This document shows, one piece after another, positions 4,963 through 21,252 of a stretch of 25,156 bases of DNA; within the stretch, counting starts at the first letter, position 1; each line of letters opens with the position of its first letter. A program made the translations under genes and the position numbers. The notes below the pieces were generated by a model. It was not told the DNA's origin. It saw only the letters and a program-made list of their open reading frames with translations, and searched no databases. Source of the stretch: a virus. Where the stretch lies: positions 1-25,156 of the IMG/VR virus record IMGVR_UViG_3300027844_000552; one strand, 5' to 3'.

Positions 4963-7506
4963 ATGGCAAAATCGCGAACAGACGACATTCAAAAAGCTCT
5001 TGATCGATTCAAACTTGGCGTCGATGCCGAGATGGATCAACGAAAGCGCGAAGTGGACGCGTTACGCTTTCAGGTGCCGGAACTATCCTGGCCCAATGAT
5101 GTGCGAGAGCAGCGCAAACCCCAGTTAGTCGGCGGGGTGGCGATTCCACAGCGGCCCATGCTCTCGATTCCCACACTCGATCATCCAATCCAGCTCACCA
5201 TTAATGCAGAAAAAGCAGCCCATTTGGGCATTGGGATCCATCCTCTGTCCGATAACGCTGATGACGATACCGCTGAGGTCTTGCAGGGGCTGTATCGGCG
5301 GATTGAGGTCGAAAGTCGCGCTGGGTTGGCGAGAAGTTGGGCGTTTGAGCGAGCAGTCAAGGCGGGACGAGGTTTTTATCGCGTCATTACGGAGCGGGAT
5401 CCGGAGAGTGACAATGCTTTCGATCAACGTATTGTCATTAAACGCATCTTGCAACAGGCCAGTGTGGTCTTGGATCCCTTCGCGCAGGAACCCGATTTCT
5501 CCGATGGGACATGGGCGTTTATTACCAACGATATGCCGTGGGATACCTATAAACGACGGTATCCCAAGAGCGAGATGGCGGCATTCAGCGAAGACGAACT
5601 CTCTGCCTTGGGGGTCGAGACACAAAGTTGGGTATCTGGCGATGAAGGGGCGGGCCGTGCCGTTCGCGTGGCTGAATATTATCGATTGGAAACACGCACA
5701 CGCCGACGCGTGCTCCTCGACGATGGATCTGACAGTTATGACGACGAAATCCCTGATGAGCGAAGTATGCGAGATGGGGATAACGCACGAACGATTAACG
5801 AAGAAGTTCCGATCTTGTATTGGTCGGTGATCAACGCTATCGAGGAGCTTGAACCCGCGCAGACACAAGATGGCCGGTATATTCCGATTATTCCCGTTGT
5901 TGGGCGAGAACTCATTCCGTTTGAGAGCGAACGACGATGGGTGGGAATGATTGAGCCAAATAAAGATGCCGTTCGGTTGTTGAATTACAGCGCCAGTAGC
6001 GCCGTCGAAATGGCGAGCCTGGAGACGAAGGCTCCCTATACGATGGTCGAGGGGCAAGAAGAGGGGCACGAACAGGAATGGCAACTTGCCAATGTGCGGA
6101 ATTTCCCCTATTTGCGTTATCGCAATGTGTCGCTCAACGGAACGCCCGCGCCTCCTCCCCAACGCACACAGGTTGATACATCACGCCTTGGCCCATCAAT
6201 GCTGCTTTTACAGCAAGCGCGAGAGTTCATCCATGAAGGTACCGGGGTTTATGAAAGTGCCTTGGGTCAGCAAGCGACGAATGCAAAGAGCGGACGCGCA
6301 GTCTTGGCACTCCAGCAGCAGCATCAGGCAGGATCGAGCCATTTTATTGATAATCTGGCCGAAATCAGTCTGACCTACGAAGCCAAAGTCATTCTTGATC
6401 TCATTCCGTATATTTATGATCGACCGGGCCGCGTCGCTCGGATCCTGGATCTAGAAGACAATTCACGGACGGTGATGTTGAATGCGCCGTTTACGATGAA
6501 TCAAGAGACAAAACGCCCGCAAATGTCGATGAATGGCGGCGGAGGTATGCCGCCAAACGGGATGGCTCCGATGCCTCCACCGCCGATGCCGCCGGGAATG
6601 GAACAAGGGATGCCTCCGGGGATGCCACCGGGAATGCCGCCGGGGATGCCTCCAGGTATGCCTCCCGGTGGGCCACCCGGTATGCCTCCCGGTGGGCCAC
6701 CCGGAATGCCACCGGGAATGCCACCGGGAATGCCGCCGCCTCAGCCGCCCCCCGACACCTCACTGTCGATTGAGCCACGGATCCAGCATTATGATCTGAA
6801 AAAGGGCCGGTATGGGATTACGGTCAGTATTGGGAAATCGTATAAGAGTCGGTCTGAAGAAGGGGCTGACGAACTTGGACAACTGTTCCAAGCGCAACCG
6901 CAACTCTTCCAGATCTTGGGTGATATTTATCTGAAATTCAGGGATTTCCCCGGACATCTCGAAGCAGCCGCTCGTATCAAGAAACTCCTTCCTCCGCCCT
7001 TGCATGATGAGGAGAATGCGCCAAACCCGCAGCAATTACAGCAACAACTGCAACAAGCGGGTCAAATGGTGGAGCAACTCACGAAGGCACTTGACGAGAA
7101 AACGCAAGAAATCGATGCGAAACTGCCTGAGTTACAGATGGAGTCACAGCGTGCTGAGGGAGATCGGCAAGCCAAGCTGAAAATTGAGCAGATGCGGAAT
7201 GAGACGCAACTGGCAGTGACGGCGATGAAGATTAAGGCGGATGAAGCCTCTTCGATCTTCAAGGCCGAGGTGAACCGTGTAGGAACAGACGCCGATCAAG
7301 CCTTTACGGCGGCTTCACAAGAAGTCACGCTTATCCATGAAAAGGCACTTGAACGAGAGAAGTTATTGTCTCAGGAACTTCGTGCGGATAAAGCGCGATC
7401 CGGCTCTCCGTCTCCCGATCCCTCGATTCTCGAAGAATCGATCATCGCCGTGCCACTTGACGCCGGAATTGATATCAGTCTCGGAGGACTTCCACCGGAA
7501 GAATAA
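4963..7506 (+). CDS. P22-like portal protein with MPPG-repeat insert, 847 aa
   Basis: Dodecameric ring at the capsid vertex that the terminase docks to and DNA passes through. The first 500 residues follow the P22-type portal pattern: acidic N-terminus, [10 protein letters not shown] and [19 protein letters not shown] in the wing region, [18 protein letters not shown] and the [13 protein letters not shown] stem region. Residues about 529-597 form a low-complexity insert of repeated G-M-P-P units, which explains much of the excess over the roughly 725 residues of P22 portal. From about 690 to 805 the sequence is a Q-, E- and K-rich coiled coil, like the barrel region of P22 portal. It begins 3 bases after terL. 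The assignment is strong; the insert is unusual. Confidence 0.92.
6547..6759 (+). repeat. In-frame GMPP tandem repeats inside the portal gene
   Basis: A run of 12-base units of the type ATGCCxCCxGG(G/A) encodes many consecutive M-P-P-G units, interrupted by two GGPP units and ending in MPPPQPPP. The units differ at synonymous third positions, so the array is not freshly expanded, yet it remains in frame. The four-residue period rules out a collagen G-X-Y repeat. Confidence 0.9.
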
Positions 7507-12200: not shown

Positions 12201-13670
12201 ATGCTCTATCCCGGCTTTATCTCGGGAAGCTATAAGTCTCAGAGTCCTCTTGCCGATCTTGAGAGGACAGTAAATTGGTATCCTGAACCCATCGAACCGA
12301 ATTCTGTCCCGTGGGTGGCCGCGCTCTATCCCTGCCCAGGATTCGAGGAATACGTCACACTGTCCAATGTGAATACTCGCGCCTTGTTCTCCATGGGAGG
12401 GCGTGTGTACGGCGTCATTGGCGATGCCGTCTACAAATTCACGGCGAGTAACTCGGCGTCGATTGTGACGAGTGGGACAGTCACGAATGACCCGAATCCT
12501 GCACAAATTGCCAGTAATGGCGATGCGGGAGGCGAGTTACTGATTGCGTCTGGCGACAATGGTTATCTGCTCAATATTGCGAGCAATGCCCTCAGCACGA
12601 TCTCTGCATTGGCAGGGAAATGCACGATGGCAGGGATGATCGATGGCTATTTTCTGTCCTTCGATGCAAGTGATTCAAAGTTCTATATCAGTGATTTGAA
12701 CGATGGAACGACGTGGGATGCCACACAGTATGCCCAGCGGAGCATTGCTCCAGATCCTTGGAAGGCAATGGTGGTTGATGGGAGCCGCCAGATTTGGCTC
12801 ATCGGAGAACAGACAGGAGAAGTCTGGTACGACGCGGGGACGAGTCCTTTCCCGTTTGCGCCCGTGCCCGGTGCGGTCTTTGGCTATGGCACGCCTGCAC
12901 CGTTTTCCGTTAAGTTAGCTGGAACCTCGATGTGTTGGCTCTCACAAACCGCAGATGGCGCGGGGATTGTTGTCGCCACGAGCGGGGTTGTCCCTGCCCG
13001 TATTAGCACCTATGCAGTGGAAACCGCTATTGCGACTTATGCGCGTGATTCGATTATTACAGACGCAGAGGCATTGGTGTATTCGGAGGCGGGACATACG
13101 TTTTATTGCCTGACATTCCCGTCAGCGAATGCGACGTGGGTGTTTGATCTCACGACAGGCATTTGGCATGAGCGCGGTGTCTGGGACGATTCTTTGGGTA
13201 TTTATGATGTTTGGGCACCGCGGAGTCATTGCTATGGCTTCGGGAAGCATTTGGTTGGTGACCGCGACTCTGGGTTAATTTGCTCGATGGATACGTCCTT
13301 TACGACGGAATGCAATGGCGATGTTATTCGTCGATTGCGTATTCCTCCGCCTATTTTCCGGGCACCCGGCGTACGCCGAATGTTTGTCAGTCGCATGGAA
13401 TTGATCATGGAAACGGGGCTTGGCGCGGCCACTGGGCAAGGGGTCAATCCGCAAGTCATGTTGCGATCAAGTACGAATGCGAAAACCTGGTCAAATGAGC
13501 GGCTCGCGACGGCTGGAGCGATGGGCGCGTATGACGCACAGGTCGTTTGGACACGCTTACCAAGTAGCCTGAAGTTGTGGGTGCCTGAGATTACGGTGAC
13601 CGATCCCATTCCGTGGCGAATCATGGGGGCCGAGATTGATGGGCGCGGCTTCTTCGGACAGGGGGCGTAA
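12201..13670 (+). CDS. P22 gp10-like tail hub (packaged DNA stabilisation) protein, 489 aa
   Basis: Hub protein of the short tail that follows gp4 and prevents DNA leakage. The beginning, PGFISGSYKSQSPLADLERTVNWYPE, is a typical gp10-family start (SYxxxSxxxDxERxVNxYPE), then LYPCPGFEEY and repeated beta-propeller-like strands such as GRVYGVIGDAVYKF, GGELLIASGDNGYLLN, and QIWLIGEQTGEVWY. Late in the protein are FYCLTFPSANATWVFDLTTGIWHERG and YGFGKHLVGDRDSGLICSMD, also family-typical. Length is near that of P22 gp10 (472 aa). Its stop overlaps the next start as TAATG. This is one of the clearest calls in the region. Confidence 0.93.
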   Translation: MLYPGFISGSYKSQSPLADLERTVNWYPEPIEPNSVPWVAALYPCPGFEEYVTLSNVNTRALFSMGGRVYGVIGDAVYKFTASNSASIVTSGTVTNDPNPAQIASNGDAGGELLIASGDNGYLLNIASNALSTISALAGKCTMAGMIDGYFLSFDASDSKFYISDLNDGTTWDATQYAQRSIAPDPWKAMVVDGSRQIWLIGEQTGEVWYDAGTSPFPFAPVPGAVFGYGTPAPFSVKLAGTSMCWLSQTADGAGIVVATSGVVPARISTYAVETAIATYARDSIITDAEALVYSEAGHTFYCLTFPSANATWVFDLTTGIWHERGVWDDSLGIYDVWAPRSHCYGFGKHLVGDRDSGLICSMDTSFTTECNGDVIRRLRIPPPIFRAPGVRRMFVSRMELIMETGLGAATGQGVNPQVMLRSSTNAKTWSNERLATAGAMGAYDAQVVWTRLPSSLKLWVPEITVTDPIPWRIMGAEIDGRGFFGQGA

Positions 13671-14533: not shown

Positions 14534-15124
14534 ATGGCGTGGATACCAACAGTCGCGGGTGCGGGCCTTACTGCTCTTGGTGCATATGGGGCATCGAAAA
14601 AGCAAGCCAGTAGCGCCACGAATGCGGCCAATATACGAGCGCGGACTGCGGCCAATAACGCAAAGCTTCTCGCTCAGTCGGAGGACACGAAGCTAAAATA
14701 TTTACAAGGTGAATCTGCGCTTACGCGTCAACAGGCTGGACACGCCCAACAAGAAAATTATGGGATGTGGGATGTCTCTGAACAGAATATTTACAATAGA
14801 AACAATGCCGCTGCCCTGAATGCCTATAATTTAGCGACGACACGAGGGCTAAACGAGGTTGATAGATTTAATGTAGGCCAAGGGAATGTCTTTGACCAGT
14901 GGACGACTGGCAGGGCCGATAGGAATCTTCAGTTGTCGCAGAAGGATCAACGGATGTCTGAGTTGGGCGTGCTGCTTGGAATGAGGCCTCGGGGAGGCTT
15001 AACCTTCGGAGACGATCCGACGCTCCGTCAAGCCACCCATAGACCTGGAGAACAACCGGTAACCCCTGATCGTGTGACGAGGCCATATAACCCGTTTGTC
15101 CCCACCGGTTCCTCAAACGTCTGA
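14534..15124 (+). CDS. Putative internal or ejection protein with hendecad repeats, 196 aa
   Basis: The N-terminus has a short hydrophobic, glycine- and alanine-rich helix (VAGAGLTALGAYGASKKQ), followed by an Ala/Asn-rich coiled region. From residue 76 to 131 the sequence falls into 11-residue units with aromatic residues at Y76, Y87, Y98 and F120, and V109 in the missing place. The same period is exact in the 270-aa gene two places further on. Hydrophobic N-terminus plus long helix is the usual plan of P22 gp7- or gp16-like ejection proteins. The start follows the GNAT gene after 16 bases. Role is inferred from position and repeat pattern, not from a known family. Confidence 0.7.
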   Translation: MAWIPTVAGAGLTALGAYGASKKQASSATNAANIRARTAANNAKLLAQSEDTKLKYLQGESALTRQQAGHAQQENYGMWDVSEQNIYNRNNAAALNAYNLATTRGLNEVDRFNVGQGNVFDQWTTGRADRNLQLSQKDQRMSELGVLLGMRPRGGLTFGDDPTLRQATHRPGEQPVTPDRVTRPYNPFVPTGSSNV

Positions 15125-15134
15125 TAGGTAAACC

Positions 15135-16685
15135 ATGACACCAGAAGAATATAAAAGAATCACCGGTCGTGAACCAGACGAAGACGAACTGGAAGCGCTC
15201 GCATGGCTTACGACGCTTTCCGAAGAAACTGGAGCGGGAGTCGAAGCAGGTGATGTCAGGGATATCCTTGAGAATCAAAATACAGAAGGTGGATGGGATC
15301 CCCGAAGTGATGCGGATAGTGAGGGCCAAAAGGCTAAGTATGTTCAGCAATATGCCTTGCGTGGTGCGACTGGCGGAGATCGAGGTGAGGGTGGGTATAG
15401 CACAGAGCTAGTAGACGATCCTGAAAGACAGTGGACGCGTGGGGTGGCAGCTCAAGCGGGAGATCCAGGCGAAGAGGGATCGCCGGGAGTTGAGAGTGTG
15501 CCATGGGTAAAACCTACTACGCCAAGACCTACTTCATCGAGCAATGTGCGAGAGCGCATTATACAGATGTATGAGCAGTTTCACTTGCGTACTCCAAGTG
15601 AGGATGAGGTGGACGACTGGTTTGAGGGACTTAATTACCCTGGATGGTATGGGACAAGGGAACCTAAGCCTGGTTGGGAAAAAACGCTCTTCGATGGGAT
15701 AGTTGGATCTCCCGAATACCAAAAAAATGCGGAAGGAAGATTAAACGATCTATACCTAAAATATTACGGTAGGGAAGTCGAAGATGATGAAATATATTCG
15801 AATCTTAGACATCCACAAGGACTTTTAGGCGTAGAGTGGACATTAGCGCAGAATCCGGGAGAAGCTTATAAGGCCTCAGTTGATCCTTACGAGCCAGAAG
15901 TGGTGGGCCGTGATCCGAGAGACGCTAAGGAAGCCGTAGTAGCCTCATGGGATAGAGGCGTACCCACTATGGGGGATATCTGGAATCCCCGCCCTGTTCC
16001 CGATCCTGACCCTGACCCTGATCCTGACCCTGATACAGATCCTCCAGGTGCGCTGGCTACGGCTCAACCAACAATTGCACCGCCAAAAGCGCCCTATAGC
16101 GCACGTCCGGTCACGCAGCCTTATACCGTCGATCCCAGGGCAGGATCATCTCGGATGCCGTGGGCACCAAACCCCTATACGGCTCAACAGGTGTATCCGC
16201 CCGGAATGCCTTCCGTGTCTCCGTATCAAGGCACTGTGGGATCAACCGTATCGGCTCCGACCTCGCCCACGGTAGCGAGTGGAGGCGATCCGGCGTCGTG
16301 GAACAACTTTAATGGATATTATGGGAGGGCTAGTCAGGACTATGCCGCAGGGCCGCAGGGGGCGGGATACAATCCTGCGCCGTGGGCGAATATTGATAAC
16401 AGACTTATGGGTGGGCCACGTGGGCGTCCGGGTCTAGCTGGGATGTCGGATGAGAGTGCCGAAGATCGTCGAGCGCGACGAGCCTATGAGTTTGGTCGTC
16501 GAGAGCGCGTAGGAAATCAATCGAATGCCGATCTGGGGAACCAAGATTTTAGGAGTCAAATGGATCGCTGGATTCGGTCGTATAATCAGTGGAATCAGCA
16601 GGGCGTCGATCCCTTTGCTCCCCCGGTGGGTGGTCGTCGGGCCATCACGGGAACAGGCTCATCGAATAACACGGGAGGTTCGTAA
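15135..16685 (+). CDS. Tail or ejection-region protein with three DUF4214-like motifs and a PD repeat, 516 aa
   Basis: Three similar segments Y-x5-R-(E/T)-(P/V)-x-(E/D)-D-E-(L/V/I) occur at Y6-L19, Y146-V159 and Y207-I220, resembling DUF4214-type repeats known from secreted and adhesion proteins. Residues 289-300 are six Pro-Asp units. Residues 304-390 are rich in P, Y, T and Q. The C-terminal segment (about 470-494) with F472, Y483 and F494 at 11-residue spacing matches the end of the next gene at 10 of 25 positions. Its start has AGGT upstream and its stop overlaps the next start (TAATG). It may link virion parts or form part of the ejected set; the function is not known. Confidence 0.7.
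   Translation: MTPEEYKRITGREPDEDELEALAWLTTLSEETGAGVEAGDVRDILENQNTEGGWDPRSDADSEGQKAKYVQQYALRGATGGDRGEGGYSTELVDDPERQWTRGVAAQAGDPGEEGSPGVESVPWVKPTTPRPTSSSNVRERIIQMYEQFHLRTPSEDEVDDWFEGLNYPGWYGTREPKPGWEKTLFDGIVGSPEYQKNAEGRLNDLYLKYYGREVEDDEIYSNLRHPQGLLGVEWTLAQNPGEAYKASVDPYEPEVVGRDPRDAKEAVVASWDRGVPTMGDIWNPRPVPDPDPDPDPDPDTDPPGALATAQPTIAPPKAPYSARPVTQPYTVDPRAGSSRMPWAPNPYTAQQVYPPGMPSVSPYQGTVGSTVSAPTSPTVASGGDPASWNNFNGYYGRASQDYAAGPQGAGYNPAPWANIDNRLMGGPRGRPGLAGMSDESAEDRRARRAYEFGRRERVGNQSNADLGNQDFRSQMDRWIRSYNQWNQQGVDPFAPPVGGRRAITGTGSSNNTGGS
15999..16034 (+). repeat. Hexanucleotide repeat coding for (Pro-Asp)6
   Basis: Six CCxGA(T/C) units in frame code for P289-D300 of the 516-aa protein. Units are not fully identical (CCCGAT, CCTGAC, CCTGAT), so the array is partly degraded. 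Change in unit number would keep the frame and only change linker length. Confidence 0.8.
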
Positions 16686-17497
16686 TGCCGTGGACACCGG
16701 ATCCGAATATTCGCGGTCTTCTTGGGACGTTTGATTATGGAGCGCCGACCACGCCTCCTGTCCAACCCTATACACAACCGTATTACACACCTTCTGCGCC
16801 ATATCAGCCGCCGAGTCCCTATCAGACGAACCCGTATACGGCTCCTAGCTATCAAGCCGCCACACCCTTTGGCCGACCAGAATATAGTGCAGCCGATCCG
16901 TTCACCTCTCCGACCGCGGCCACCATGCAGCAGGATCCTGGCTATCAGTTCCGACTGACGGAAGGTCAGAAGGCGCTTGAACGGTCGGGGGCGGCTCGTG
17001 GGGTGACGAATACGGGCGGGAACTTAAAGGGCATTGTGGATTATGGGCAGCAATCCGCCAGCCAAGAATATGGCAATGTTTATAATCGGAGCCTCCAAAA
17101 TTACAATGTCAATGAGCAGAATCGACTCAATGCGTATGGCCTGAACTATGGGAATGCGGCGAGTGCCTACACGATGAATGAGGCGAATCGAGCACGAGGC
17201 TTTGAGCGAAATGCCGCCAATGCCTTTCAAGCTTATGGGGCGAATGAATTAGGTCGGGCGGGTGCGTATGGCACAAACGAAGCGGCTCGTCAGTCGGCAT
17301 ATAACGTCAATGAGTTGAACGCGCAAAATGCTTATTCCACAAATGCGATGGCGAATCAGGCGCGATACTCGATGAATGTGGGTCAAGCGCAGCAGGATTA
17401 TACGAACCAGTTTAATAGCTGGGTGGAAGCGTATAACCAATGGCGTGCAAGTAGCATGGATCGCTTTAACGAGCAGTTTCAAGGTCGGCAGGTCTGA
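16685..17497 (+). CDS. Hendecad-repeat phage ejection-type protein, 270 aa
   Basis: Residues 1-80 are rich in P, Y, Q and T. Next comes QQDPGYQFRLTEGQKALE (82-99), then SGAARGVTNTGGNLKGI, the signature of a widespread phage protein often annotated as DNA transfer or tail-region protein. From Y129 to F261 an aromatic residue occurs exactly every 11 residues: 129, 140, 151, 162, 173, 184, 195, 206, 217, 228, 239, 250 and 261. In nine successive units an Asn stands three places after the aromatic residue. Such hendecads form long, nearly straight helical coils. Location before two large internal proteins suggests an ejected, trans-envelope component; this is inference. Start overlaps the previous stop (TAATG). 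Confidence 0.8.
   Translation: MPWTPDPNIRGLLGTFDYGAPTTPPVQPYTQPYYTPSAPYQPPSPYQTNPYTAPSYQAATPFGRPEYSAADPFTSPTAATMQQDPGYQFRLTEGQKALERSGAARGVTNTGGNLKGIVDYGQQSASQEYGNVYNRSLQNYNVNEQNRLNAYGLNYGNAASAYTMNEANRARGFERNAANAFQAYGANELGRAGAYGTNEAARQSAYNVNELNAQNAYSTNAMANQARYSMNVGQAQQDYTNQFNSWVEAYNQWRASSMDRFNEQFQGRQV
17069..17494 (+). repeat. Protein-level hendecad array in the 270-aa gene
   Basis: Thirteen consecutive 11-codon units, consensus (A)Yx(V/M/T)N followed by six helix-forming residues. The DNA units are not identical, so this is an old repeat kept by selection on protein, not a recent expansion. Confidence 0.85.
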
Positions 17498-17500
17498 GAA

Positions 17501-19450
17501 ATGCCGCCATTTCAATACGACACATTTGTTGACCCATACGTCGGAAGCATTGCCCAGTTAATGGGCCAGCAGGGGCAAAGACAGGCTGACGCGGCCGAAC
17601 GGATTGCCGCAATTCGAGCGCAGGAAGCGACGCAGCGTGGGGATATCTGGGGTGGAGCGATTCAGGGGATCGGGAATCTTGCCTCGACTACCCTGACCGA
17701 GTGGAACTCCCCGGAAGCGCGGCGTCAGCGAGAACTAGATAAAGCCAACGAGTTTCTGAGGAATGCGAGTCAGGATGTCAGTAGTGTTTCTACTCCATAT
17801 TATCAAGCAGGAAATCTCCGGCGCGATCCAGGAAGTCCCGGATCAACGATTCAGCATTTAACACCGGGTGTGACAACCGGGGATCTAGGAATGGATCTAT
17901 CTGACCCCCAAATAGCCGAAGCCTATGCACAGGCAATAGAATCTGGACAACTACAGCCTTCAGGCCAGATTTCTTCTACTTCGGCAGCACTCCCAGAGAT
18001 GCCCGTTGGAGCGCGTCCTTCTCGAATCGTTAAAGACCCTGGAACTATAGAGCAAAGAACGCAACAGATAGTCGGAGCTTTTGTAACCCCAGAAGGAAAC
18101 CATGACTTACGTGCTCAGGTAGAAGCCATGAGGGCGGAGGGATTTTCTCCAGATATCATCAATACAACAATGGAGAGATCGAGTCAAACGAATGCCCTCC
18201 TAGAAGCCTATGATGCCAGAGAGAAAAAGGGCGAAGACGAAGCAACTGTTTTGATGGGGCAGCTTGCATCTGATGTTTTAGCCTTGTCGGAGAATGGTGT
18301 CTTGCCATTACAGGAATTAATCGATGTGAATCTCTCTATTTTGGAGCCTCGATTCGGTAAAGAGGGCGTGAATCGTTTGCGGGTAGAGATAAATTCACTT
18401 CCTGAAGACAAGCAAATAGAAACACTTCTAGGCATGGCTAATGCCGCAGATAGAATCACTGGACATGAGTATGTTTCTCGGGACGATGTTGCAATCGGCA
18501 AAGGAACGGCACGAGAAAGGGATGTGTTAGGCCCGAATGCAGTTCAATACTTGCTGGGTATCATGGTTGACCCCGATAATCCACCTGGAAGTAAGAAGCA
18601 TGAGGATGCGTTCAAAAGACTTCAAAACATTAATTTAACCGATCTCCAAGCAGAAGAGGCTGATCGTGCGCATGGCCGAACAATAGCTGACCGAAGGGCG
18701 ACAGTCGATGAACGCATGGTGTCCGTAGAGGAGCAGCTACTGGCTTGGCGGAAAGAGGGTGGCTACGGTTTCACTGGCTCGTCTGGATTGTCAGGTCAAG
18801 GTAGCGGTGCTTTTGATCCTGAAAAGGTTCAAGTCATTATTGATAACCCTTCATTGTTTGCCGCTATGACTCCGACAGAGCGTCAGAACTACATAGTTCC
18901 ACTCGCAAAGGAGACTAACGGTAAGTTCGATTTTGACATTCAAGGCTTAACACCTTCGATGGCTGGTGGTATCGCCTCTTTAAGTGTCCGACTGGAACAG
19001 ATGGAGGCCCTCGATGCGACGTTAACGCAACTGACTGGAATTGAAGGAAAGATGGCCGGTCTTTGGGATCGATGGTTTGTATGGACGGGTGAGAACGCCG
19101 ATCATGCTGATTTTCTTGGGATATCTAACTCAATTTTACCAGCCTTGGCGCGGAGTTCTGGTGAAGTCGGAAATCTCGCGGACAAAGAGGTAGCGTTATA
19201 CAGCAAGCTCCAACCGACGATGACGGATCCAGTGAATATTCGACGTGCTAAATATGCAGCTATTCGATACATTATTGACGCCGCAGAGTCTGGGGCAACA
19301 TCTGATGAAATGCGTCCTTTTCTTGACTATATGGATTTCTACAGTGATCCATCTTATAGGCCTATTTCCTTAGGTCGTGAGCCTATTGATCCATACGGGA
19401 GAAATCCTGTGATATTGAGATTTGACGATAAAGGGAACTTCGTTCCGTAA
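17501..19450 (+). CDS. Large internal virion (ejection) protein, putative, 649 aa
   Basis: Begins MPPFQYDTFVDPYVGSIAQL and continues with a long Q-, A- and R-rich helix (QGQRQADAAERIAAIRAQEA). Most of the chain is helical and mildly acidic with few cysteines, and no catalytic motif was found. The segment LARSSGEVGNLADKEVALYSKL (near residue 550) is a pattern I associate with large internal proteins of phage ejection regions. It lies between the hendecad protein and the glycine-zipper protein, just where P22-like and N15-like podoviruses keep their pilot proteins. It begins 3 bases after the previous stop. Codon use shifts to more A/T in third positions in the middle of the gene. Confidence 0.7.
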   Translation: MPPFQYDTFVDPYVGSIAQLMGQQGQRQADAAERIAAIRAQEATQRGDIWGGAIQGIGNLASTTLTEWNSPEARRQRELDKANEFLRNASQDVSSVSTPYYQAGNLRRDPGSPGSTIQHLTPGVTTGDLGMDLSDPQIAEAYAQAIESGQLQPSGQISSTSAALPEMPVGARPSRIVKDPGTIEQRTQQIVGAFVTPEGNHDLRAQVEAMRAEGFSPDIINTTMERSSQTNALLEAYDAREKKGEDEATVLMGQLASDVLALSENGVLPLQELIDVNLSILEPRFGKEGVNRLRVEINSLPEDKQIETLLGMANAADRITGHEYVSRDDVAIGKGTARERDVLGPNAVQYLLGIMVDPDNPPGSKKHEDAFKRLQNINLTDLQAEEADRAHGRTIADRRATVDERMVSVEEQLLAWRKEGGYGFTGSSGLSGQGSGAFDPEKVQVIIDNPSLFAAMTPTERQNYIVPLAKETNGKFDFDIQGLTPSMAGGIASLSVRLEQMEALDATLTQLTGIEGKMAGLWDRWFVWTGENADHADFLGISNSILPALARSSGEVGNLADKEVALYSKLQPTMTDPVNIRRAKYAAIRYIIDAAESGATSDEMRPFLDYMDFYSDPSYRPISLGREPIDPYGRNPVILRFDDKGNFVP

Positions 19451-21252
19451 TGCCACCTCAAGCACCACGGACGATTGAAGAGGCGAGGGCGATGGGCTTC
19501 ACCGTCAGACAGACGCCTGACGGGTGGACGGCAGTCGATGAGCGGGGTGGGGTAACCCCGACAGAATCTTCTTCGCCCCCACCACGGACGATTGGGGAAG
19601 CGAGGTCAAGGGGTTTAACGGTTAGCCGGACATCTGACGGCTGGACGGCAGTTGACGAGAGGGGCGAAGATTTTTCTCTTGCTACTCAACCAACTGATTC
19701 TACTGCAACGGTAACTCCTGACAGGCCAGATTCCTTTGCATCTAAGTTTTTCGGTATTCCACAGGTGCGAGGATTAGCGCAACGAAAAAATCTGCCTATG
19801 ATTGGAGGCACGGTCGGAGGGATAGCCGGGGGTATACCCGGTGCTCTTCTGGGCGGGGCTGTCGGTGAGGGTCTTCGTCAGGCCACTGGCAGTGAATCAG
19901 ATCGAGCGGGTCTAAGTAGAGCCTTGCAAGTAGCATCAAGTCCTGCTCTCCTGTGGATGATGTCTCCAGAACAACGATCTCAGGCCTACGACTCAGGAAT
20001 GGGACTTGCGAAACAGGGGGCATTCCATGGGGGATTGGAAGGTGCAGGGAAGGGTGTGGGGTTGGTTACGGGTAAGGTATCAAAATGGGCAATGGATAGT
20101 GCATTAAAGGCAGGTCTTCGGCTTCCTAAGTTACCGTTTTCTGGTGTGGGGGGATCGACGGAGGCTACTGGAACTATTACCAATCCATCTTCCATTGCTG
20201 CAAAATTTCCGAATATTGACATTCCTCAAGAGGCGATAAATCGCAGAATTCCTATCACTAGCCCAGGCCTTCAAGCGGTCGAACGTGACATGAGAATGGC
20301 ACGAACCGATGTTCTTGATACGATAGCCGAAGTATCAAGAAATCGTCCTGCTGTCAGTGGACTTTTACCCGAAGGTACAATGGCAGTACCGACAGGAACC
20401 ACGCCAGTTCCATCTGGAGGGGTAATTAGTGTTGGCCCCTCTCGTAATCTAGCGCGTGTGCCGTTTTCTCAAATCCGATCTCGACAGGGAACTGATGTAA
20501 GTCCTCGTGGCGATGTCTCAAATATTTTTGGAGGAACTCCATCGAAGATTACTCCATCAGCGACCGCTGATGTAGTAGAAGGCGCTGGGACTGTGCGTAT
20601 GCCAATGAGTGCGGCTGGTCAAACCGCTCCAGCGGCTTCATTGATTCCACGTCAAAGTGCCATGATTGGCATAGATGAAGTCTTAGAGCCTGCATTGGCT
20701 AGACAAGCCTCGCAAAGAGGAGTGGTCTTGGCTGATGAAGCGAAAGTTCTCGACGACTTAATAGCAAAAGTTAGAGAAGATTACGCTGATCCGGTTGATC
20801 TCATACTAGCTCAAGAACGTAAGGATTATGCTCAAGACCGCGCTATGGGATTGTGGGTTGAAGGGAAAGGTGGGGTAAAGGCTCCATCCGAAGATCGTTT
20901 TTTTCAGGATATGGCATCTGGATACCAAAAAGCTATTGAGGCGAGGATTCCTGGGATTGCTGGGAAAAACAAAGAAACACAAACACTCTATGCTCTCTAT
21001 CACACGATGAGAGTAGCCTTAGATAGAGAAGCACGATCTGCTCGATTCACAGTGGCTGGTGCCATAGATAATCCCCGTTTATGGGGGAAAATAAGTACTG
21101 CGTTAAGAGGATTAAGTTCCGCTTTTAATATGGCTCCAATGGCATTACGTGGATCGTATCTCGCATTACAGACAATGTTCGGTGAACCTAAATTGATGCC
21201 TAGCCATCAGCAAAATCAAAGCACTAGTACGATGGCCGATATCGTCCAGTAA
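19450..21252 (+). CDS. Large internal protein with tandem N-terminal repeat and glycine zipper, 600 aa
   Basis: Residues 6-33 and 45-72 are two copies of a DGWTAVDERG-ending module with 21 of 28 residues identical and a period of 39. Residues about 119-141 (IGGTVGGIAGGIPGALLGGAVG) form a glycine zipper of the type able to enter membranes. The C-terminal half is helical, with RKDYAQDRAMGLWVEGKG and FMAPMALRG-like end features seen in phage internal proteins. Together with the 649-aa gene before it this is the probable large pilot or ejection protein. The start overlaps the previous stop (TAATG). No lytic transglycosylase or peptidase motif was seen, so it may be purely structural. Confidence 0.75.
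   Translation: MPPQAPRTIEEARAMGFTVRQTPDGWTAVDERGGVTPTESSSPPPRTIGEARSRGLTVSRTSDGWTAVDERGEDFSLATQPTDSTATVTPDRPDSFASKFFGIPQVRGLAQRKNLPMIGGTVGGIAGGIPGALLGGAVGEGLRQATGSESDRAGLSRALQVASSPALLWMMSPEQRSQAYDSGMGLAKQGAFHGGLEGAGKGVGLVTGKVSKWAMDSALKAGLRLPKLPFSGVGGSTEATGTITNPSSIAAKFPNIDIPQEAINRRIPITSPGLQAVERDMRMARTDVLDTIAEVSRNRPAVSGLLPEGTMAVPTGTTPVPSGGVISVGPSRNLARVPFSQIRSRQGTDVSPRGDVSNIFGGTPSKITPSATADVVEGAGTVRMPMSAAGQTAPAASLIPRQSAMIGIDEVLEPALARQASQRGVVLADEAKVLDDLIAKVREDYADPVDLILAQERKDYAQDRAMGLWVEGKGGVKAPSEDRFFQDMASGYQKAIEARIPGIAGKNKETQTLYALYHTMRVALDREARSARFTVAGAIDNPRLWGKISTALRGLSSAFNMAPMALRGSYLALQTMFGEPKLMPSHQQNQSTSTMADIVQ
19465..19665 (+). repeat. Tandem 39-codon duplication in the 600-aa gene
   Basis: Copies at 19465-19548 and 19582-19665 start 117 bases apart and code for homologous 28-residue modules. 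The linker between them is threonine-, serine- and proline-rich. DNA copies have diverged at many synonymous sites, so both are kept by selection. Confidence 0.9.

What the first reader, a model, noticed from the sequence alone, without database searches (positions are those of the whole stretch)
17069..17494. Thirteen-unit hendecad array with aromatic residue at every 11th position
In the 270-aa protein an aromatic residue stands at exactly 11-residue intervals from Y129 to F261, and nine successive units have Asn at +3. Hendecads make almost straight helical bundles, suited to a rod or tube through the cell envelope. Such a regular Y-x-x-N hendecad in a phage ejection-region protein is, to my knowledge, not described.
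Basis: partly seen in the sequence, partly recalled or inferred. Interest (0 to 1): 0.72.

Follow-up and report, generated by a model that had tools for sequence, protein, structure and literature searches.

The report
Thirteen-unit 11-residue helix in ejection protein
A short-tailed phage related to P22 makes a DNA-ejection protein whose second half is predicted to be one very long straight helix, built from thirteen 11-residue units with the same face kept by selection; it probably helps form the tube or rod that carries phage DNA through the bacterial cell wall, and its length varies between relatives in whole units.

Summary
In detail: in the 270-aa ORF (16685-17497) all 13 positions from Y129 to F261 at a spacing of 11 are aromatic, with Asn at +3 in nine successive units; no shuffle in 100,000 reaches 13. 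The protein matches PHROG 598 ('DNA ejection'), the family that also holds P22 gp7, and follows the gp10-like head-closure gene as in P22. About 120 relatives show that the hendecad register is family-wide, starting at the Tyr of EYGNVYNR and running for 1 to 15 units. Among seven close relatives amino-acid changes are purged on one helix face (a, d, e, h) and frequent on the other (b, f, j). AlphaFold2 predicts one uninterrupted helix, residues 114-269 (about 230 A). Some relatives carry 66-nt DNA duplications, so arrays can grow by 22 residues at a time. 'Not described' holds for this family in the papers searched, but a hendecad-containing DNA-conducting helical tube is known: the phiX174 pilot protein H. 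Whether this array forms a tube, a solid bundle or stays single could not be tested. Verdict: a new variant of a known kind; tube or rod is the best inference.

The parts
16685..17497 (+). 270-aa gp7-like DNA-ejection protein (ATG 16685, TAATG overlap with the upstream gene)
   Evidence: PHROG 598 'DNA ejection' E 2.5e-8; relatives
16685..16912 (+). N-terminal Pro/Tyr-rich arm (residues 1-76), almost no helix in the model
   Evidence: sequence; AlphaFold2 model
16934..17092 (+). conserved family core DPGYQFRL...SQEYGNVYNR (residues 84-136)
   Evidence: alignment A1, invariant G106, A125, Y129, R135; hits cover this part
17069..17467 (+). hendecad array: 13 aromatics at residues 129+11n, Asn at +3 in units 2-10
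17024..17491 (+). single predicted alpha helix, residues 114-269, pLDDT about 85-93 over most of it
   Evidence: AlphaFold2, 31-sequence alignment
17375..17491 (+). C-terminal cap QQDY..QF.SW...YNQWR...DRF.EQ, shared with the C-terminus of the upstream 516-aa protein
   Evidence: E about 2e-5 in a comparison of the five neighbouring proteins
15135..16685 (+). 516-aa acidic protein, upstream partner; in L011, L012, L014 and L017 the array-bearing core lies in one larger ORF with an N-terminal extension
12201..13670 (+). gp10-like head-closure (Hc3) gene that fixes the P22-like order
   Evidence: PHROG 578, E 6.5e-88

Best explanation
The gene encodes a P22-gp7-like ejection protein. It is packaged in the head and, on infection, leaves through the short tail. 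Its C-terminal half is one straight hendecad helix of about 230 A (143 residues of array = 214 A). Copies are inferred to associate in parallel through the a/d/e/h face (Tyr/Phe at a, Asn at d, Glu/Ala/Tyr at e, Arg/Ala at h) into a rod or tube of roughly periplasmic length that forms part of the trans-envelope DNA conduit, in the manner of the phiX174 H tube. Shown: the sequence period, its conservation, the conserved face, the family match, the gene order. Predicted: the single helix. Inferred: virion location, ejection, oligomer, conduit.
For: PHROG 598 match, a family that P22 gp7 matches at 2e-95; gene order head-closure then ejection gene as in P22, DSL-LC05 and VvAW1. Aromatic frequency in 70 non-redundant relatives is 57, 37, 23 and 21% at +11, +22, +33 and +44 from the anchoring Tyr, with most other offsets near 5% apart from the +4/+15/+26 series. 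In seven close relatives no amino-acid change at position a in 13 columns against 130 silent pairwise differences; nonsynonymous share 0.15-0.23 at d, e, h but 0.59-0.66 at b, f, j. One helix 114-269; a distant relative, L016, also gives one helix of 143 residues through its array. Published parallels: the phiX174 H tube with hendecads, 170 A long, lumen lined by Asn/Gln/Arg; the T7 gp15 tunnel about 200 A high; P22 carries about 12 gp7 per virion, enough for a decamer-sized tube (PMC8402733 abstract).
Against: The core is polar (aliphatics 0% at a, 2% at d), so a conventional tight coiled coil is not obvious. The P22/T7 counterpart of this gene (gp7/gp14) is assigned to the outer-membrane pore, and gp20/gp15 to the tunnel. 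The window protein has no hydrophobic segment (highest 19-residue mean about 0), so it cannot do the membrane part alone. No oligomer was modelled. Many relatives carry only 1-3 units, so a long array is not essential in the family. A direct profile comparison with P22 gp7 alone found nothing.
Confidence: 0.5

Rival explanations
1. The long helices act inside the virion: they line or extend the portal barrel as a solid bundle or sleeve (a pre-ejection scaffold or plug) and form no conduit in the envelope.
For: P22 ejection proteins are thought to lie near the portal, and the P22 portal has a 15-nm helical barrel (PMC4992974 abstract). The window portal is P22-like (E 8e-113).
Against: Proteins of this family are ejected in P22 (PMC8402733 abstract); the copy-number growth to 15 units is not obviously tied to portal size (not tested).
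Confidence: 0.2
2. The helix is a shape adaptation: one long, thin, marginally stable helix passes the narrow tail channel easily, and the array is a spacer with no specific oligomer.
For: The array is Asn/Ala/Gln-rich and the protein has near-zero net charge. In phage Peru-2 an ejected internal protein is seen as two helices in the tail lumen.
Against: A mere spacer does not explain strict selection on one face, with a invariant in 13 of 13 columns and d and e in 11 of 13 each.
Confidence: 0.18
3. The conserved stripe binds another partner lengthwise: packaged DNA, a membrane surface, or the neighbouring 516-aa and 649-aa proteins, as a helical tape.
For: 11-residue amphipathic repeats are known in membrane-lying helices (alpha-synuclein, apolipoproteins; own knowledge). 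Asn/Arg can contact DNA. T7 gp16-N acts as a molecular tape on gp15. The 516-aa protein shares the C-terminal cap.
Against: The face lacks the aliphatic and Lys pattern of lipid-binding 11-mers, and the protein has net charge -1, poor for general DNA binding.
Confidence: 0.12

Closest known systems
P22 gp7 / PHROG 598 'DNA ejection' (also annotated 'DNA transfer protein p32')
   Same: Matches the same profile; same place after the head-closure gene; shares the DPGYQFRL...EYGNVYNR core with PHROG 598 members such as the protein of phage DSL-LC05
   Different: The C-terminal half is a 13-unit hendecad helix in place of the Gly/Ala-rich, partly hydrophobic C-terminus of P22 gp7; the N-terminus is a Pro/Tyr-rich arm
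phiX174 DNA pilot protein H (H tube, PDB 4JPP)
   Same: Hendecad repeats in a long helix of a DNA-delivery protein; amide and guanidinium residues on the conserved face
   Different: No sequence match (PDB search); H has 3 hendecads and 11 heptads and Gln where this has Tyr; ssDNA tailless phage; a decamer is proven there, untested here
Sf6 gp12 / P22 gp20 decamer and T7 gp15-gp16 tunnel
   Same: Ejected proteins of short-tailed phages that make a channel of 150-200 A
   Different: They are products of the next gene in the cluster; no hendecad array reported for them in the passages read
Uncultured Caudovirales 'DNA transfer' and DUF4214 proteins (BFVD A0A6J5SVL9, A0A6J5QY22)
   Same: Closest predicted folds (E 2.6e-10 and 0.022; the best is 50% identical)
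   Different: Larger proteins with extra parts; function not studied as far as found

Membership tests
PHROG 598 / P22 gp7-type ejection protein | profile match to PHROG 598 | tested here: met
   E 2.5e-8, residues 80-185; P22 gp7 itself 2e-95
PHROG 598 / P22 gp7-type ejection protein | gene order after gp10-like head closure and before larger ejection genes | tested here: met
   Hc3 at 12201-13670; same order in P22, DSL-LC05, VvAW1; the 649- and 600-aa genes downstream had no family match
PHROG 598 / P22 gp7-type ejection protein | direct similarity to P22 gp7 | tested here: not met
   hhalign of a profile of the window protein against P22 gp7 alone: probability 0.1; the link is through the family profile only
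PHROG 598 / P22 gp7-type ejection protein | hydrophobic Gly/Ala-rich C-terminal segment as in P22 gp7 | tested here: not met
   highest 19-residue hydropathy about 0 against 1.31 at residue 190 of P22 gp7
PHROG 598 / P22 gp7-type ejection protein | packaged in the head and ejected into the cell | not testable with these tools
   needs virion proteomics and infection assays
hendecad (11/3) coiled coil | 11-residue period with conserved a/d/e/h face | tested here: met
   period 3.66; nonsynonymous share 0.00-0.23 at a, d, e, h against 0.47-0.66 at b, c, f, j
hendecad (11/3) coiled coil | aliphatic hydrophobic core | tested here: not met
   a = aromatic 86%, d = Asn 58%; aliphatics 0-2% at a and d
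hendecad (11/3) coiled coil | parallel oligomer | not testable with these tools
   only monomer prediction was available
phiX174 H-type DNA pilot tube | sequence similarity to protein H | tested here: not met
   PDB sequence searches returned no H protein
phiX174 H-type DNA pilot tube | lumen lined with Asn/Gln/Arg | tested here: inconclusive
   d is 70% Asn/Gln/Arg and h 37%, but which face would look inward is unknown

The most novel reading that the evidence does not exclude
The array is a length-adjustable DNA-conducting tube: rings of Asn (d) and Arg (h) line the channel, Tyr and Ala seal neighbouring helices, and whole units (16.5 A) or pairs (33 A, by 66-nt duplication) are gained or lost to fit the span of the host envelope; a hendecad tube reached independently of phiX174 H in a dsDNA tailed phage.
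Probability: 0.18. Interest if true: 0.75.

Novelty: new variant of a known kind. Interest (0 to 1): 0.45.

Why it matters
How P22-like phages carry DNA across the periplasm is unsettled, and the gp7 family had no solved relative in the PDB sequence searches made here. A regular array with a fixed rise per unit, and relatives with 3 to 15 units, offers a natural length series: if the array is the conduit, its length should set the length of the conduit. It also points to possible convergence on hendecad helices between ssDNA and dsDNA phages.

Tried and rejected
Globular fold: rejected by the model. Chance or low-complexity artefact: rejected by shuffles and background frames. Recent DNA tandem repeat in the window: rejected. 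22-residue superperiod in the window array: not significant (shuffle p 0.24), though it is suggested in L060, L011, L051, L013 and others at p 0.007-0.05 without correction for 17 arrays. PDB relatives by sequence or fold: none. Pfam: one sub-threshold match (MbeD_MobD, E 0.019), not credited. Relation of the window's 649- and 600-aa genes to P22 gp20 and gp16: not found. Paper searches for hendecads in podophage ejection proteins: none beyond phiX174 H.

Full report
Observation. The ORF 16685-17497 encodes 270 residues. From Y129 to F261 an aromatic residue stands at every 11th position, 13 of 13, and Asn stands three residues later in the nine units that begin at 140 to 228. The best alternative period gives 7 aromatics, and 100,000 shuffles gave at most 10. 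In 1,862 unrelated reading frames of 150 aa or more from the loci then held the longest such run was 5. The aromatics peak at a period of 3.66 residues, the 11/3 of a hendecad. The DNA shows no tandem or direct repeat there.

What the protein is. It matches PHROG 598, 'DNA ejection', at 2.5e-8 over residues 80-185. P22 gp7 matches the same profile at 2e-95. A profile of the window protein set against P22 gp7 alone finds nothing, so the link is remote and runs through the family. The surroundings are P22-like: portal (8e-113) and coat (3e-32) by Pfam, head closure Hc3 by PHROG 578, then small genes and the ejection region. The same order, with a gene annotated as DNA transfer or DNA ejection after the gp10-like gene, stands in phages DSL-LC05 and VvAW1 and in P22. 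The window is a 25,156-base virus record. Thirty-four phage records carry a relative, but the match is to the core and the first part of the helix only.

Relatives. Scans of viral and genome contigs gave 135 loci (some contigs twice). The core model found 122 family members, 103 of which could be anchored at the Tyr of EYGNVYNR, the window's Y129; this Tyr was invariant in the first 28-sequence alignment. In 70 anchored members below 70% identity, aromatics occur at +11, +22, +33 and +44 in 57, 37, 23 and 21%, and at +4, +15 and +26 (positions e) in 100, 41 and 34%; the +4 value is fixed by the anchoring pattern itself. Uninterrupted runs range from 1 to 15 units. Close relatives keep 13 units; L009 has 15, L051 10, L049 8, L011 7, and a distant one, L060 (the same contig as L016), 8 with a W/Y-D-R-N unit. 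The hendecad register is thus a feature of the family, and the long array is an expansion in some lineages.

Selection. In seven relatives with collinear arrays, pairwise codon differences at position a were 130 silent and 0 replacing. The replacing share was 0.15 at d, 0.20 at e, 0.23 at h, and 0.66, 0.66 and 0.59 at b, f and j. Columns a, d, e were invariant in 35 of 39 against 45 of 99 for the rest (Fisher p 1e-6, which treats columns as independent). On a helical wheel this is one continuous face, the canonical core of a hendecad, found without any structure prediction. The pairwise counts share ancestry and are not independent events.

Growth of arrays. L051 and L049 hold three 66-nt-spaced direct repeats (77-82% identity to the reference copy), and L016 two. 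The corresponding proteins tend to alternate two unit types (lag-2 identity above lag-1; nominal p 0.007-0.05 in several of 17 arrays); the window array does not show this significantly. Arrays therefore appear to lengthen by 22-residue duplications and then diverge.

Structure. AlphaFold2 with 31 sequences gives one helix from 114 to 269, with pLDDT about 85-93 over most of the array, preceded by a short helix and a Pro/Tyr-rich arm without regular structure. pTM is 0.41 and the model is a monomer; a lone helix is an easy outcome for such a predictor, so it supports helicity and continuity, not assembly. A second model, for L016, has a 143-residue helix through its array with lower confidence towards its end. 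Fold searches find uncultured phage 'DNA transfer' and DUF4214 proteins and nothing credible in the PDB.

Mechanism. The helix is about 230 A long by residue count (1.5 A per residue). P22 ejects about 12 gp7 (PMC8402733 abstract), T7 builds a tunnel about 200 A high, and phiX174 uses a decamer of helices with three hendecads and a lumen of Asn, Gln and Arg, 170 A long. Sf6 gp12, in the P22 group, was fitted with that tube. From this I infer a parallel rod or tube in the envelope conduit. The conserved face is rich in Asn and Arg beside Tyr, which is compatible with an amide-lined channel, but it is equally compatible with a polar core in a solid bundle. The reviewed assignment of gp7/gp14 to the outer-membrane pore is a caution: this protein has no hydrophobic segment, so the roles may be distributed differently here.

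Neighbours. In several relatives the array-bearing core sits in one larger ORF with an N-terminal extension, which I read as fusion or fission of these two genes; the blastp search with the 516-aa protein did not itself recover those N-terminal extensions at the threshold used, so this reading rests on a short shared motif seen by eye and on position.

Novelty and score. A hendecad helix in a DNA-delivery protein is known from phiX174; a long Y-x-x-N array in the gp7 family was not found in the literature searched, which lacks most subscription papers. I rate it a new variant of a known kind, interest 0.45.

Noticed in passing
window 6585-6738: The P22-like portal gene carries a 12-nt tandem repeat encoding a Met-Pro-Pro-Gly array ([13 protein letters not shown]) beyond the best-matching stretch of the Pfam portal model.
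   Followed up: no
window 15135-16685 and 16685-17497: The C-terminal cap W...YNQW of the 270-aa protein recurs at the end of the upstream 516-aa protein; in relatives such as L011, L012, L014 and L017 the core and array lie in one longer ORF.
   Followed up: partly
window 15992-16043: Short Pro-Asp (PDPDPD) tandem repeat inside the 516-aa gene; the protein is four residues longer there in L003.
   Followed up: no
window 19450-21252: The 600-aa protein begins with two similar copies of a segment of about 30 residues (PRTI.EAR..G.TV..T.DGWTAVDERG).
   Followed up: no
L029, L031, L036 (ends of the gp7-like proteins): Some gp7-family relatives end in what looks like a chaperone-of-endosialidase (S74-type) domain; the L036 protein (Pseudomonas phage PAE2) is annotated so (pfam13884), an odd ending for an ejection protein.
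   Followed up: no
window 14534-15124: The 196-aa protein has a Gly/Ala-rich N-terminus reminiscent of gp7-type proteins and a weak resemblance (E 0.03) to the hendecad array, so it may be a split-off or paralogous ejection protein.
   Followed up: partly
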